Both the position numbers and the translations under genes were made by a program. DNA of 64,000 nucleotides from Halofilum ochraceum (GTDB taxonomy: Bacteria > Pseudomonadota > Gammaproteobacteria > XJ16 > Halofilaceae): the NCBI RefSeq assembly GCF_001614315.2, contig NZ_LVEG02000001.1:1-64000 (forward strand), in the 5' to 3' direction. Of the stretch, positions 897 through 45,831 are shown piece after piece (within the stretch, counting starts at the first letter, position 1; every line of letters starts with the position of its first letter). The notes beneath the pieces are model-generated. The model saw only the letters and a list, made by a program, of their open reading frames with translations. It had not been told where the DNA came from and ran no database searches.

Positions 897-2219
897 TCAG
901 CGGGCGCGGCGGCCCGGGTTGCCACCCTGCGCACGGTTGCCACCTTGCGTGCGGTTGCCGCCGCCGTTGCCGTTTTGTCGGCGAACCTGACCGGCGTTGC
1001 GGTTCTGTCCCTGATTTCGGCCCTGGCCCTGACCGCGACCTCCGTTCTGGCGGCGTTTCGCGGCGACCGCGGTTTCCTCGAACGGGTCGGGCTCGTAGCC
1101 GGGTACCGGCTCGGAGTGGATGTTGCGATTCATCATCCGCTCGATGCCCTTGAGGAGTTTCCGGTCATCGCCGGAGACCAGGGACACGGCCTGGCCGTCG
1201 CGGCCGGCGCGGCCGGTGCGGCCGATGCGGTGGAGGTAATCCTCCGGCACTTCCGGCAGATCGTAGTTGACCACGTGCGGCAGGTGGTCGATGTCGAGGC
1301 CGCGCGCGGCGATGTCGGTCGCCACGAGAATGCGGACACCGCCTTTCTTGAACTGCCCGAGCGCCTTCGTGCGTGCGCCCTGCGTCTTGTTGCCATGGAT
1401 CGCGGCGGAGCTCAGGCCGTCGCGGTCGAGTTGCATGGCCAGACGGTCGGCACCGCGTTTGGTCCGCGTGAAGACCAGAACCTGTTGCCAGTCGCCGTCG
1501 CGGATCAGGTGACTGAGCACGGTTTTCTTGCCGTCGCGATTCACCGGATGGACCTTCTGGGTCACGGTGTCCACCGCCGAATTGCGCGCGGCGACCTCGA
1601 TCCGGGTCGGTCGCGTCAGCATGCCCTGGGCGAGTTCGCGGATGCCGTCGGAGAAAGTGGCCGAGAACAGCAGCGTCTGACGCTGCTTCGGAACGGCCGC
1701 GATCACCTTCTTGATATCGTTGATGAAGCCCATGTCGAGCATGCGATCGGCCTCATCGAGCACCAGCGTCTCGACCTGCGAGAGGTCGACCGTGCGGCGC
1801 TGCAGGTGGTCGATCAGGCGGCCCGGGGTCGCGACCAGGATGTCCACGCCGCGGCGCAGCGTCTGCACCTGGGGCTGCATGCCGACGCCGCCGAACACGG
1901 TCGTCGATTTCAGCGGCAGGTGGCGGCCATAGGTCTTGACGCTCTCCTGGACCTGCGCGGCCAGTTCACGCGTCGGCGTGATGACCAGCGCCCGGATCGG
2001 GCGCCCGCCCGATTTCGGCTTTTCGCGCATGAGCCGTTCAAGGATCGGCAGCGTGAAGCCGGCGGTCTTGCCGGTACCGGTCTGGGCCGCGGCCATGACG
2101 TCGCCGCCGGCGAGGATCGCCGGGATGGCTTCAGACTGGATCGGTGTGGCGGTGCTGTAACCCTGATCCTGGACAGCACGAAGCAGCGCGGCCGAGAGGC
2201 CGAGATGGGAGAACGACAT
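897..2219 (-). CDS. rhlE: DEAD-box ATP-dependent RNA helicase, RhlE type
   Basis: This 440-residue protein has the full DEAD-box set: Q motif (GYSTATPIQ, 20-28), Walker A AQTGTGKT (45-52), PTRELA (82-87), DEAD (155-158), SAT (186-188), RGLDI (306-310) and HRIGRTGR (330-337). It should unwind short RNA duplexes with ATP, in ribosome assembly, RNA turnover or cold adaptation. The tail from about 388 is basic and rich in Gly, Asn, Gln and Arg with repeated QGGN-like units, an RNA-binding extension common in RhlE proteins. AGGAG precedes the ATG. The leader of more than 150 nt contains a pyrimidine tract (around 2281-2297) and might be regulatory. It is a monocistronic gene with its own terminator. 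Confidence 0.95.
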
Positions 2220-2465
2220 GTGAATTGCTCCTGGAGCCTGTCCGGGTACGGCTATGGCCGTTCGCCCGGGTCCGGTCCAGGCAAAAAAGAAAAGGGGATT
2301 CGAGGTGCGATCCTGAAAGGATACCGGGAACTACCGCGAAAACGTGATGCCGACCGGTCGCATCAGCGATGCGCACGATAACAGAACCCGTCCCGGGACA
2401 CACGGAAAATCGCGGGACCGATCGATCGACACGGCTTAGCCTCGTAGCGGCCGTACCGAACGACG

Positions 2466-2495
2466 CGTTGGGTTTCCTTCGTCAACCCAACCTAC
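2466..2495. repeat. Dispersed palindromic repeat, family B (intact copy)
   Basis: The 30-bp unit has arms GTTGGGTT and AACCCAAC around a CCTTCGTC centre and ends in CTAC. Related copies lie at 32731-32805, 43336-43369 and 45014-45041, and the last is interrupted by an insertion sequence. It sits in the 310-bp gap upstream of rhlE, where I see no gene. Short imperfect palindromes of this sort behave as REP-like elements. Confidence 0.75.
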
Positions 2496-2529
2496 GGGGG
2501 TTGGGGCAACCGGAGACCGCCGTGTCGCC

Positions 2530-2925
2530 CTATAGGCTCAACCACAAATCCGCAGCGATCGCCGCGGCGGAGAGCACGAAGATCACGAGATAATTGAACC
2601 GCTCCGGCGAGATCCGGATCGAATACAGAATCGCCGCGATCTGCTCGCGGTCGATCTCGCTCAATGGCTCGTCCGAACGCATCTTCCGATCCAGGTCCCC
2701 GCCGACGACCGCACGCACGCGGCGCAGCGATACCCAGTAGCGGTAGGAGAAGAAAGCCGCATTCAGCAGCACGCCGAGATACCACAGCGGCCGGACCCAT
2801 CCAGGCTCCACGTGCTCCGCGATAATGATCGCGCGGAATGCGAGGCTGGAAACCAGACCGACCGCGAGCAGGGCGATGATGACGGGCATCGGGATGATGC
2901 GGAATCGGGCCGGCGTTTCAGTCAT
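2530..2925 (-). CDS. Small integral membrane protein, unknown function
   Basis: The 131-residue product has three predicted membrane segments at about 12-32, 44-63 and 112-129. A charged cytoplasmic-type loop (65-105) contains RRVRAVVGGDLDRKMR and a DREQIAAILYSIRISPERFN helix. I do not recognise the family with confidence. It is read leftward and stands alone, upstream of neither the RidA gene nor the helicase in an obvious operon. Hydrophobicity pattern, codon use and clean boundaries support it as a real gene. Confidence 0.6.
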   Translation of the reverse strand: MTETPARFRIIPMPVIIALLAVGLVSSLAFRAIIIAEHVEPGWVRPLWYLGVLLNAAFFSYRYWVSLRRVRAVVGGDLDRKMRSDEPLSEIDREQIAAILYSIRISPERFNYLVIFVLSAAAIAADLWLSL

Positions 2926-2982
2926 GGTGGGGCCGCCAGAATGGGACCCCGGAAGGGCGACCGGCGCGCAGAGCGGGCACGT

Positions 2983-3393
2983 TCATTCGTCGTCCAGGAT
3001 CGCCACTGCCGCGATCTCGATCAGGTATTCGGGCCGTCCCAGCCCATCGATGATCAACAAGGTGTTGGTCGGGTAATCCGGGCCGTTCAGCCAGCGCTGG
3101 CGCGCCTCGGTCGCGGCGTCCCGGTATGCCCGGTCCACGATCCATGTGGTCGTGGAGACCAGGTCGTCCAGACCGCCGCCGGCCGCTTCCAGTACGCTCG
3201 CGAGGTTGTGCCAGACCTGTTCGGCCTGGCGCGCGCCGTCGCCGATACCGACCGGGCTGCCATCCTCGTCCACCGCCACCTGACCGGCGATCCAGAGCTG
3301 GTTGCCGGCCCGCACGGCCTGCGAGAAGGCGAGCGGTTCGTTCCACTCTTCATTGAAACGCCGGATCCGACGCGGTCGCTGATGCGAGCTCAT
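2983..3393 (-). CDS. RidA (YjgF/YER057c/UK114) family protein
   Basis: The ATG at 3393 has GGGAG about eight bases upstream, so I prefer it over a longer in-frame start at 3507. The 136-residue product carries the RidA fold signatures: an FSQAV segment near the N-terminus, then WIAGQVAVDEDG, a QAEQVWHNLASVLEAAGG helix and a C-terminal YLIEIAAVAI strand. RidA proteins hydrolyse reactive enamines/imines released by PLP enzymes. The usual GRPAR-type arginine of RidA itself appears as GRPEYLIEI, with Glu in place of the Arg that holds the substrate carboxylate. This member may therefore belong to an Rid subfamily (Rid4-7-like) with another role. Confidence 0.8.
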   Translation of the reverse strand: MSSHQRPRRIRRFNEEWNEPLAFSQAVRAGNQLWIAGQVAVDEDGSPVGIGDGARQAEQVWHNLASVLEAAGGGLDDLVSTTTWIVDRAYRDAATEARQRWLNGPDYPTNTLLIIDGLGRPEYLIEIAAVAILDDE

Positions 3394-32730: not shown

Positions 32731-32805
32731 TATCGCTGGCGCTCAACCCAACGCGCCGGACCCGTGATTCTGCGTCTGCAGGTCAGGTTGACGAAGGAAA
32801 CCCGA
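32731..32805. repeat. Dispersed repeat, family B, two-unit copy
   Basis: The first unit (TATCGCTGGCGCTCAACCCAA, read in two parts around 32731-32752) and second unit (CAGGTTGACGAAGG then AAACCCGAC, 32784-32805) are separated by about 30 bp. The same unit order, without the insertion sequence, occurs at 43336-45041. It fills part of the 340-bp gap upstream of the LysR gene; no other signal is seen there. Confidence 0.65.
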
Positions 32806-43335: not shown

Positions 43336-43369
43336 CGTTGGGTATCGCTGGCGCTCGATCCAACCTAAG
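43336..43369. repeat. Dispersed repeat, family B, left unit beside the insertion sequence
   Basis: GTTGGGTATCGCTGGCGCTC followed by GATCCAACCTAAG is an imperfect palindrome like the first unit at 32731. The interrupted second unit resumes at the left flank of the IS (ending CGTAG at 43406) and continues after it. Confidence 0.7.
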
Positions 43370-43493
43370 GCATGCAAACCGATCAATCGGATCCGCACGA
43401 TCGTAGATCCTATGGGTGGGTCTCAAGGAAGGGCCGCAGTCAAGGCTATCCTGTGGTTGAGAGTCCAACAGCGACCACGAAGGAGGTTCCGGG

Positions 43494-44636
43494 ATGACTG
43501 CGACCCTTCGCGATCAGGCTACGACGGCGACTGAGGTGATGTACATGGCCCTGGAGTTGTCGGGGTCGAAGTGGCGGGCGGCGTTCGCCACGCCGGGAGA
43601 CGAGCGCACGCCGCAGTGGTCGATCGCCGCGGGCGATCTGGCGGCGCTGGCGCGCACGGTCGAGCGGGCGAAGGCGAAGCTCGGGGGTGCGGCGGGCACT
43701 GTGGTACGCAGTGTGTACGAGGCCGGCCGCGACGGTTTCTGGCTGCACCGCTGGCTCCAGGCGCAGGGCGTGGACAACCGGGTTATCGACGCCGGCAGCA
43801 TCGAGGTGAACACCGCGCGCAAGCGGCGCAAGACCGATCGTCTGGATGCGCGGCTGTTGCTGCGCAAGCTGATCGCGTTCTGGGGCGGTGATCGGCGCGT
43901 GTTCTCGGTCGTCGAGGTGCCGCCACAGGAGGTCGAGGCGGTGCGCCGCCTCGAGCGTGAGCGCGAGCGCCTGGTCGGCGAGAGTACGGGGCACACCAAC
44001 CGCATTCGCTCGCTGCTGGCGCTGGAGGGCCACGCCCGGGTGGCCGTCGACCGCCACCTGCGCGAGCGCCTCGCCGAACTGCGGCGCTGGGATGGCACGG
44101 CGCTGCCGCGCTGCCTGATCGAGGAGATCGAGCGCGAGTTCGCGCGCCTGGAGCAGGTGCGCGAGCAGCGCCGCAGCGTCGAGGCCGAGCAGCAGCGCCT
44201 GGTCGAGGCGGGCGACGAGGAGGTGATGCAGGTCGTGCGCACGCTCGAGCGGGTGAAGGGCGTGGGCCCGGGCAGCGCCTGGATCCTGTCGCTGGAGATG
44301 CTCGGCTGGCGCCGCTTTGCCAACCGCAAGCAGGTCGCGGCACTGGCGGGACTGGCGCCGACGCCGCATGCCAGCGGCTCAAGCGAGCGCGAGCAGGGCA
44401 TCGACAAGCACGGCAATCGCCGGGTGCGCGCGGTGATGGTCGAACTCGCCTGGCGCTGGCTGCGCTGGCAGCCCCACAGCGAACTCAGTCAGTGGTTCCG
44501 GCGCCGCTATGGCGGCGCGAGCCGGCGCCAGCGCCGCATCGGCATCGTGGCGCTCGCGCGGCGGCTTCTGGTGGCGCTTTGGCGCTATGTCGCGCGCGGT
44601 GAGCTCGACCCCGATGTGGTACTCAGCGCTGGCTGA
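43494..44636 (+). CDS. IS110 family transposase
   Basis: AAGGAGG precedes ATG 43494. The 380-residue protein has an N-terminal RuvC-like domain with candidate acidic residues Glu21 (ALELSGSKW), Glu76 (VYEAGRDG), Asp115 and Asp118 (KTDRLDAR), so the first of the usual D-E-D-D is Glu. A long basic helical middle (about 145-240) follows. The C-terminal Transposase_20 domain has LERVKGVGP, RKQVAALAGLAPTPHASGSS and GIDKHGNRRVRAVMVELAW, including the catalytic-type serine. It is full length and looks intact, so the element may be active. Confidence 0.92.
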   Translation: MTATLRDQATTATEVMYMALELSGSKWRAAFATPGDERTPQWSIAAGDLAALARTVERAKAKLGGAAGTVVRSVYEAGRDGFWLHRWLQAQGVDNRVIDAGSIEVNTARKRRKTDRLDARLLLRKLIAFWGGDRRVFSVVEVPPQEVEAVRRLERERERLVGESTGHTNRIRSLLALEGHARVAVDRHLRERLAELRRWDGTALPRCLIEEIEREFARLEQVREQRRSVEAEQQRLVEAGDEEVMQVVRTLERVKGVGPGSAWILSLEMLGWRRFANRKQVAALAGLAPTPHASGSSEREQGIDKHGNRRVRAVMVELAWRWLRWQPHSELSQWFRRRYGGASRRQRRIGIVALARRLLVALWRYVARGELDPDVVLSAG

Positions 44637-45013
44637 GCACGGCGCGAGCGCGCACGAGCCGGACAGCGACAACCGGGTCGATGTGAGCCGGATGGGCTGA
44701 TCCGCCGGGCCAGCGCGACGGGCAACGAGGTTGGGCCGCGCCCGTAACCCAGCCCGGTCGACGATCCTCGACCGACCCCTGTAGATGGGGCGCGGCCATC
44801 ATCCCGGTGAACCGACGGCGCATGCGGCATTGGGTGATCGGCGAGCACGCCGACACGGATAGAAGGTCGTCGCGGGTCCAAAAGACCCCACGCGAGATCA
44901 CCGGGACCTCGAGGCTGTAACGCCGCGCCTGGACAGGTGGATCGCGCATGCGGCCAGCGGAGGCGCTGATGTAAACAAAGCCACGATGGCCTTGACACAA
45001 CACGCCTCATAGA
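44637..45013 (+). ncRNA. Candidate bridge RNA region in the IS right end
   Basis: IS110-family elements encode a bridge RNA in their longer non-coding end. Here 44734-44743 (GGCCGCGCCC) pairs with 44788-44797. Inside is a second stem GGTCGA/TCGACC (44756-44761 and 44768-44773), giving an internal loop of the sort that displays guide sequences. The loop strands hold AACCCA (complementary to target TGGGTT right of the insertion) and GTAGAT (identical to the left junction). Just 5' lies AGGTTGGG (44728-44735), identical to the target from the core onward. Exact RNA ends are not predictable by eye. Confidence 0.45.
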
Positions 45014-45041
45014 AGGTTGGGTTGACGAAGGAAACCCAACG
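45014..45041. repeat. Family B repeat, right part interrupted by the IS
   Basis: AGGTTGGGTTGACGAAGG followed by AAACCCAACG continues the unit whose first bases (CGT, before the AG core) lie left of the IS at 43402-43406. It matches the complement of 2466-2493 base for base. Confidence 0.8.
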
Positions 45042-45093: not shown

Positions 45094-45831
45094 CTACCGC
45101 ACCTCGAACTCGGTGGATTCCCACAGCCGCCCGATCCCGGGTAACGCCGTGTTCAGACCCGCCAACCGCGCGGTGTGCCAGAGGCTGACCTGGTTGGCCG
45201 TCAATACCGTGCAGCCGAGTCGATCCTCGAGATCCTGGATCCATTCCAGTGTCGGTACGGCCGTGTCCGGAATCAGCAGCGCGCTCGCGGGGTCGACGGT
45301 CATGGCGGCCGCCGATTCGAAAAACCGCGCTTCGCCCAGCGCGGCCGCGGCCGGCCCCGACGGCGCATCGAGACAGCGCATTGCGTCGACCGTAATCCCG
45401 GTCTCGCGAAGGAAGTCCGCAAACGCGGCCGCGGTCGCTTCCGGGTAGGTGGCCACGATCGACACCCGGGCGATGCCCAGTGCATTCAGCGCCGCCGAGA
45501 AGGCGAGGGAGGTGCTCGTGGCCGGACAGCGCAGCATCGTGCCGAGGGCCTCGGCCTGGGCGCGGGCATGCCCGAGCCCGTCGATGAAGCTGCCGCTCGT
45601 GCAGGCCCAGACGGCGGCGTCGGGTGCCAGCGGTGCCAGTGCCCGCGCGCTGGTCTCGAGATTCGGGAGGGCGGCCGTCCGCCGCAGGTGATGCGGTGCG
45701 TGCTCGTCGTCATCGCCGAAGATGCGGACCCCCATCAGCGCAATGCGCACGTCTTCGCCGAGGCGCTCGCCATGGCGGTAGTATTCGAACTCTGCGCCGG
45801 ACGGCGGGTAGAGTATGCCGAGTCGGGTCAT
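45094..45831 (-). CDS. Asp/Glu racemase-superfamily protein, maleate isomerase-like
   Basis: The 245-residue protein starts TRLGILYPPSGAEFEYYRHG, typical of the maleate cis-trans isomerase/arylmalonate decarboxylase branch. The first active-site Cys is present in VWACTSGSFIDG (about 77-87). At the second site, where maleate isomerase has Cys, the sequence reads LIPDTAVPTLEWI with no Cys. A one-cysteine enzyme could be a decarboxylase or lyase with different stereochemistry. It stands alone downstream of the IS, and its substrate is unknown. Confidence 0.75.
   Translation of the reverse strand: MTRLGILYPPSGAEFEYYRHGERLGEDVRIALMGVRIFGDDDEHAPHHLRRTAALPNLETSARALAPLAPDAAVWACTSGSFIDGLGHARAQAEALGTMLRCPATSTSLAFSAALNALGIARVSIVATYPEATAAAFADFLRETGITVDAMRCLDAPSGPAAAALGEARFFESAAAMTVDPASALLIPDTAVPTLEWIQDLEDRLGCTVLTANQVSLWHTARLAGLNTALPGIGRLWESTEFEVR

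What the first reader, a model, noticed from the sequence alone, without database searches (positions are those of the whole stretch)
43336..45041. IS1111-type element inserted into a REP-like repeat; empty site can be rebuilt
Joining the left flank (...CGTAG) to the right flank (GTTGGGTT...) after removing 1609 bp yields a family B unit matching the intact copy at 2466-2495. The junction fixes the element ends and gives an AG/CT core dinucleotide on both sides. IS110/IS1111 elements are known to target REP sequences, often with a CT core. The two-unit empty relative at 32731-32805 shows the usual context.
Basis: partly seen in the sequence, partly recalled or inferred. Interest (0 to 1): 0.72.

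Follow-up and report, generated by a model that had tools for sequence, protein, structure and literature searches.

The report
RNA-guided jumping element in REP repeat
A small mobile DNA element sits exactly at a tagged palindromic repeat (REP), and the RNA it encodes carries a guide that pairs with that repeat; this is a clean new example of a known kind of RNA-guided insertion rather than a new kind of system.

Summary
A 1,607-bp IS110-family element (window 43407-45013) lies between two AG dinucleotides and splits a REP unit exactly after its GTAG tag. In the same genome 16 of 16 other exact copies of the hairpin are preceded by CGTAG; only the interrupted copy lacks it, and CGTAG sits on the far side of the element. 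About 28 relatives (44-50% protein identity) share the ends AG|ATNCTATG...CATAGA|AG, so the boundaries are fixed. Its right target guide pairs 10/10 with GGTTGGGTTG; of 5,602 AG sites in the window only the insertion site and one intact REP do so. Its left guide ends UGUAG, fitting CGTAG. A related element in another gammaproteobacterium sits after GTAG in a different REP family, with a guide fitting that REP. So this is most likely an RNA-guided, REP-targeting element. The layout is IS1111-like, but the strict IS1111 subterminal repeats are absent. The left end mismatches its own donor guide at one base (29 of 30 elements match), so this copy may be impaired. New member of a known kind (ISPa11, IS621, Coxiella IS1111).

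The parts
43337..43369 (-). First REP unit (family A, degenerate), GTTGGGTATCGCTGGCGCTCGATCCAACCTAAG; on the minus strand it reads like the CGTAG-GTTGGGTTGAGCG...ATACCCAAC repeat, with a decayed tag
   Evidence: Sequence; related copies in the genome at 83-94% identity; intact family A copies shown
43403..43406 (+). GTAG tag of the interrupted REP unit (family B); its AG (43405-43406) is the left core dinucleotide
   Evidence: 16/16 uninterrupted exact hairpins are preceded by CGTAG; all relatives with defined ends start AG|ATNCTATG
43407..45013 (+). Whole IS110-family element, 1,607 bp between the two AG cores
   Evidence: Ends shared with about 28 relatives: ATNCTATG...CATAGA
43407..43493 (+). 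Left non-coding end (87 bp); begins ATCCTATG; third base C (43409) mismatches the element's own donor guide
43494..44636 (+). IS110-family RNA-guided recombinase, 380 aa, intact; candidate catalytic residues E21, E76, D115, D118 and S294
   Evidence: Pfam PF01548 and PF02371; NCBIfam NF033542, 185 bits against a cut-off of 140; alignments
44637..45013 (+). Right non-coding end (377 bp), carrying the bridge RNA
44724..44914 (+). Predicted bridge RNA (seekRNA) region; transcript ends not determined
   Evidence: 25-sequence alignment, 31 consensus pairs, 17 with compensatory changes; shuffle and slide controls
44745..44754 (+). Right target guide UAACCCAGCC; pairs 10/10 (8 Watson-Crick, 2 G.U) with target GGTTGGGTTG at 45015-45024
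44776..44784 (+). Left target guide CCCCUGUAG; its UGUAG fits CGTAG with one G.U
   Evidence: weak for the window alone, significant over the family
44824..44831 (+). Right donor guide region GCGGCAUU; base 44828 (C) should pair with left-end base 43409 (C): mismatch
   Evidence: 29 of 30 elements complementary at this pair, the window is the exception
44857..44865 (+). Left donor guide GGAUAGAAG, matching right end CATAGAAG (45008-45015) over AUAGAAG
   Evidence: Invariant in alignment A1; co-changes to GGATAGGAG / CATAGGAG in the G038 element
45014..45015 (+). Right AG core dinucleotide
45016..45040 (+). Hairpin part of the interrupted REP unit (family B), GTTGGGTTGACGAAGGAAACCCAAC
   Evidence: 17 exact genome copies, 28 with up to 3 mismatches, control 0

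Best explanation
This is an IS110-family insertion sequence with an IS1111-like layout. It inserted as a circle into a GTAG-tagged REP unit by RNA-guided site-specific recombination. The recombinase uses a bridge RNA encoded in the right end. The left target guide reads the CGTAG tag, the right target guide reads the REP stem GGTTGGGTTG, and the donor loop reads the element's own joined ends. Exchange at the shared AG core places the element between tag and hairpin without a larger target duplication. Shown by sequence: ends, core, interrupted REP, conserved RNA structure, guide-target match. Inferred: transcription of the RNA, the circular intermediate, and guide use in vivo. The one-base mismatch between left end and donor guide suggests this copy may now excise or transpose poorly.
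For: Domains: PF01548, PF02371 and NF033542; weak PDB matches only to the IS621 and ISCro4 bridge recombinases. Ends: all elements with defined ends share AT[ACG]CTATG...CATAGA. Empty-site logic: 16/16 intact hairpins carry CGTAG, the interrupted one does not. Bridge RNA: 94.9% of cells paired, 17 pairs with double changes, 0/500 shuffles reach any of the five measures, slid controls 35-45% paired. Guide: over 23 elements each right target guide fits its own right flank (8.0 of 9) better than other elements' flanks (5.2), 0/20,000 permutations; left guide 4.1 against 2.8 of 7, 0/20,000; the window's right guide ranks first for its own flank both ways. Fixed-register scan of 5,602 AG sites in the window: only the insertion site and the intact REP near 2493 reach 10/10, none reaches 9. 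Independent case: an element in G038, 49% identical in protein, lies after GTAG in REP GTAGGAGCGGATTCATCCGCGAT (8 intact copies there, 0 in G000); right guide CUCCGCUCC pairs 8/9 with GGAGCGGAT and left guide ACUUUGUAG fits ACTTCGTAG with one G.U.
Against: No strain with the truly empty locus was found, and the element is single-copy in its genome. The left target guide of the window is not distinctive on its own (rank 6 of 23 by row, 9 of 23 by column). The permutation tests do not correct for relatedness of the elements. The right guide uses two G.U pairs, and its perfect Watson-Crick core GTAGGCTGGGTTA does not occur in this genome. The left end mismatches the donor guide at one base. The guides of L049 and L036 fit their flanks poorly (4.5 of 9), so guide match is not universal. 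No expression data.
Confidence: 0.9

Rival explanations
1. The element inserted by a structure-directed route: the recombinase recognises the REP hairpin (cruciform) rather than sequence read by a guide, and the guide similarity is incidental.
For: Several unrelated IS families insert into REPs, some at the symmetry axis (PMC1525189), so structure-based targeting exists.
Against: Insertion is at the tag/stem boundary, not the loop; the guide pairs 10/10 with the site, a level reached by 2 of 5,602 AG sites; relatives with the same RNA fold insert in other sites that fit their own guides.
Confidence: 0.05
2. The REP match at the junction is a coincidence: the element inserted beside a REP already lacking its tag, and CGTAG at 43402-43406 is a chance 5-mer.
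For: A given 5-mer has about a 10% chance per 100 bp by simple counting, and no true empty site was found.
Against: The 5-mer lies exactly at the family-defined left end, next to the AG core, and the guide predicts UGUAG there. The G038 element shows the same arrangement in another REP family.
Confidence: 0.02
3. The element is a dead relic: it arrived by RNA-guided insertion, but the left-end base 43409 and donor guide base 44828 no longer pair, so it cannot form or use its circle efficiently. (A refinement of the best explanation rather than an exclusive rival.)
For: 29 of 30 elements are complementary at this pair, and only the window is C:C. Single copy in the genome despite 31 exact GTAGGTTGGGTTG sites.
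Against: The recombinase gene and bridge RNA are otherwise intact. A single mismatch in a short donor pairing may be tolerated, and low copy number is common for such elements.
Confidence: 0.35

Closest known systems
ISPa11 (IS1111 family, Pseudomonas aeruginosa REP; PMC11187229, PMC1525189)
   Same: IS110-superfamily recombinase, non-coding region downstream of tnp that yields a recombinase-bound RNA, all copies in REP sequences
   Different: Different REP sequence and host; ISPa11 was studied experimentally as a family member with subterminal repeats, which this element lacks in the strict form; sequences not compared here
IS621 (IS110 group, E. coli REP; PMC11208160)
   Same: Bridge RNA with target and donor loops, CT (AG) core; its natural target ATCAGGCCTAC reads GTAGGCCTGAT on the other strand, so its CT core is also the AG of the GTAG tag (my inference from the printed target)
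   Different: Bridge RNA in the left end; the stem is the left target for IS621 but the right target here; only weak protein similarity (22 bits)
IS1111 of Coxiella burnetii (PMC5896051) and its REP GTAGGTTGGGCTGAGCTTGCGAAGCCCAAC (PMC2817692)
   Same: Namesake of the group; 20 of 21 copies associated with a GTAG REP carried in QMITE2, of very similar sequence to the REP here
   Different: The REP there is carried in a MITE; the exact insertion register and the guide of that element were not compared here
IS110-family relatives in Burkholderiaceae found here (L030-L075)
   Same: Same ends, same bridge RNA fold, 44-50% protein identity
   Different: Guides and target sites differ; none of those with defined ends is in a GTAG REP

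Membership tests
IS110 family (superfamily sense) | DEDD RuvC-like N-terminal domain plus C-terminal serine domain | tested here: met
   PF01548 37.8 bits, PF02371 69.6 bits; NF033542 185 bits over cut-off 140. First acidic residue is Glu in all 12 aligned members
IS110 family (superfamily sense) | Bridge RNA with guides matching target and donor | tested here: met
   (by sequence; one donor mismatch in the window copy)
IS110 family (superfamily sense) | Short core dinucleotide shared by both ends | tested here: met
   AG on both sides; AG|AT...CATAGA|AG in nearly all relatives
IS110 family (superfamily sense) | Circular intermediate | not testable with these tools
   Needs PCR or reads
IS1111 group | Long non-coding region with bridge RNA downstream of tnp, short left end | tested here: met
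   Left end 87 bp, right end 377 bp, RNA in the right end
IS1111 group | Perfect or near-perfect 11-13 bp subterminal repeats, 7 bp from the left and 3 bp from the right end (PMC11187229) | tested here: not met
   Only CTATG/CATAG (5 bp) near the termini, plus an inner imperfect 13/15-nt repeat 32 and 17 bp inside. Hence not filed as a strict IS1111 member
IS1111 group | Transposase related to IS1111 along its full length | not tested
   The IS1111 protein was not fetched
GTAG-tagged REP (the target) | GTAG tag followed by an imperfect palindrome, multi-copy, often as inverted pairs | tested here: met
   28 hairpins with up to 3 mismatches, 31 exact GTAGGTTGGGTTG, control 0; A-B pairs in both divergent and convergent order
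GTAG-tagged REP (the target) | Cognate REP-associated transposase (RAYT) in the genome | tested here: inconclusive
   Four Y1_Tnp matches in the genome, none flanked directly by this REP; nearest pair about 2.5 kb away

The most novel reading that the evidence does not exclude
The GTAG tag common to many REP families is itself the anchor: elements of this subgroup keep a left guide that reads GTAG (whose AG is also the recombination core) and change only the right guide to fit the stem of the resident REP, so one lineage can follow REP families from host to host. The window element (GTAG|GTTGGGTT) and the G038 element (GTAG|GAGCGGAT) would be two cases, and IS621 uses the same boundary from the other side.
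Probability: 0.25. Interest if true: 0.55.

Novelty: new member of a known kind. Interest (0 to 1): 0.42.

Why it matters
It is an unusually complete case: ends, core, target repeat, RNA fold and guide-target pairing can all be read from sequence, and a sister element in another genus shows the guide refitted to a different REP. It offers a testable account of why IS110-type elements so often occupy REPs (the GTAG tag supplies the core and part of the left target), and a natural donor-guide mismatch whose effect on mobility can be measured.

Tried and rejected
(1) Empty site in same-genus genomes: G001 is collinear but lacks the REP and the adjacent gene, G002 has no match to either flank; uninformative. 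(3) Rfam: no match at E<=1. (4) Idea that the guide is perfectly tuned to another host's REP (GTAGGCTGGGTTA): 0 in this genome, at most 4 in any of 274 gammaproteobacterial genomes, so no clear former host. (5) RAYT next to the REPs: none adjacent. (6) L058 as a tRNA-gene insertion: ARAGORN found no tRNA in the rejoined site, dropped. (7) Tree to ask whether REP targeting is inherited or convergent: window and G038 elements fall in an unresolved fork; a first tree used a wrong frame for G038 and was discarded.

Full report
Observation. The window at 43336-45041 holds a REP pair whose second unit is split. The left flank ends ...CGATCGTAG at 43406 and the hairpin GTTGGGTTGACGAAGGAAACCCAAC starts at 45016; between them lie 1,609 bp. 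The genome of the window has 17 exact copies of this 25-nt hairpin, and 28 with up to three mismatches, against none for the backwards-read control. All 16 uninterrupted exact copies are preceded directly by CGTAG; the split copy is preceded by AGAAG, the end of the element. The element is single-copy in its genome. I did not find a strain with the empty locus: in the same-genus genome G001 the neighbouring genes are collinear, but the REP, the element and the adjacent Asp/Glu-racemase-like (Amdase) gene are all missing, and G002 has no match to either flank.

The element. Its only long gene (43494-44636, 380 aa, intact) matches Pfam DEDD_Tnp_IS110 and Transposase_20 and the NCBIfam IS110 RNA-guided transposase model with 185 bits over a cut-off of 140. 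Relatives at about 44-50% protein identity were found in Burkholderiaceae, Acidobacteriota, Gemmatimonadota and others. Comparing their DNA fixes the ends: with AG cores outside, they begin ATACTATG, ATGCTATG or ATCCTATG and end CATAGA. In five near-identical copies from one Paraburkholderia genome the boundaries fall at exactly these points. The window element has the same ends, ATCCTATG (43407) and CATAGA (45013), with AG outside each. The left end is 87 bp, the right end 377 bp. In the subgroup the first catalytic acid is Glu rather than Asp.

Bridge RNA. The right ends of 25 elements align over about 190 nt. RNAalifold gives 31 pairs, 17 of them with changes on both sides that keep the pair. 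On the given structure 94.9% of cells are paired, against 35-45% when partners are slid, and no shuffle of 500 reaches any of the five measures. Two loops stand out. In the first, between GCCCG and GATGGGGC, the sequence varies with the insertion site: for example GACAGUAAGA in elements flanked by TCTTACTGT, and GAACACGCUC in elements flanked by AG-AGCGTGTT. For the window the right target guide is UAACCCAGCC (44745-44754). It pairs over ten positions with GGTTGGGTTG (45015-45024), eight Watson-Crick and two G.U. Holding the register fixed, only two of 5,602 AG sites on both strands of the window reach ten pairs, and none reaches nine: the insertion site and the intact REP at 2493. Over 23 elements, own-flank scores exceed other-flank scores for the right guide (8.0 against 5.2 of 9) and the left guide (4.1 against 2.8 of 7), with no permutation of 20,000 as good; these permutations do not correct for kinship among the elements. 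The window's left guide, CCCCUGUAG, fits CGTAG with one G.U but is not distinctive alone. Two elements (L049, L036) fit poorly.

Donor side. The second region carries GGAUAGAAG, which matches the right end CATAGAAG, and a GG-N-AU motif whose variable base pairs with the third base of the left end. Of 30 elements, 20 are A with U, 8 are G with C, one is C with G, and the window alone is C with C. Either the left end or the guide of this copy has changed. The expected effect is weaker donor recognition; this is an inference and has not been measured.

A second REP case. The relative in another gammaproteobacterium (G038, 49% protein identity) has left flank GGGAACTTCGTAG and right flank GAGCGGATTCA, its contig ending there. 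That genome holds eight intact copies of GTAGGAGCGGATTCATCCGCGAT, a REP listed for Pseudomonas entomophila in PMC2817692, and the window's genome holds none. The right guide of that element, CUCCGCUCC, pairs with GGAGCGGA, and its left guide, ACUUUGUAG, fits ACTTCGTAG with one G.U. Its right end CATAGGAG and donor guide GGATAGGAG have changed together. The tree does not resolve whether the two REP-targeting elements share that habit by descent.

Comparison with the known. RNA-guided insertion by IS110 and IS1111 elements, including into REPs, was published in 2024 (PMC11208160, PMC11187229). REPs as IS110 targets were described in 2006 (PMC1525189). Coxiella IS1111 inserts at a GTAG REP (PMC5896051) of almost the same sequence as the one here (PMC2817692). 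The IS621 target ATCAGGCCTAC, read on the other strand, is GTAGGCCTGAT, so its CT core also coincides with the AG of the tag; this is my reading of the printed sequence. The present element has the IS1111 layout but not the strict IS1111 subterminal repeats, so I file it as an IS110-family element of IS1111-like layout, and not as a proven IS1111 member.

Verdict. The most useful additions are the guide-target match, the refitted guide in G038, and the donor mismatch. It is a new member of a known kind, of moderate interest.

Noticed in passing
L168 (G038:C3:3800-6830), element from about 1485 to 3018 in locus coordinates: A related element sits after GTAG in a different REP family (GTAGGAGCGGATTCATCCGCGAT), with guides fitting that REP and a co-changed right end and left donor guide.
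   Followed up: yes
window 43409 and 44828: The only one of 30 elements in which the third left-end base and the donor guide base are not complementary (C with C).
   Followed up: partly
window 45094-45831 and G001:C50 (L122): An Asp/Glu-racemase-like (Amdase) gene and the REP pair next to the element are absent from the otherwise collinear locus of a same-genus genome, so the whole segment was gained or lost.
   Followed up: partly
L049 (Cupriavidus lacunae) right flank: This element carries the GACAGUAAGA guide but sits at AGGGTCTGTTCC, which that guide does not fit: an off-target insertion or a guide that changed after insertion.
   Followed up: no
L055 and L071 (Paraburkholderia sp. BL9I2N2); L053 and L042 in other genomes: Four relatives have AA instead of AG at the right core (CATAGAAATC or CATAGAAAAG), though near-identical copies have AG; possibly a tolerated core mismatch.
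   Followed up: no
Genome of the window, C2:135417-135641: One of four Y1_Tnp (possible REP transposase) genes has an in-frame TAG; none of the four is directly flanked by this REP.
   Followed up: partly
A-B REP pairs, e.g. G000:C4:243022-243070 and G000:C18:122973-123087: The two REP types occur as inverted pairs in both divergent and convergent order, as in BIME/REPIN arrays.
   Followed up: partly
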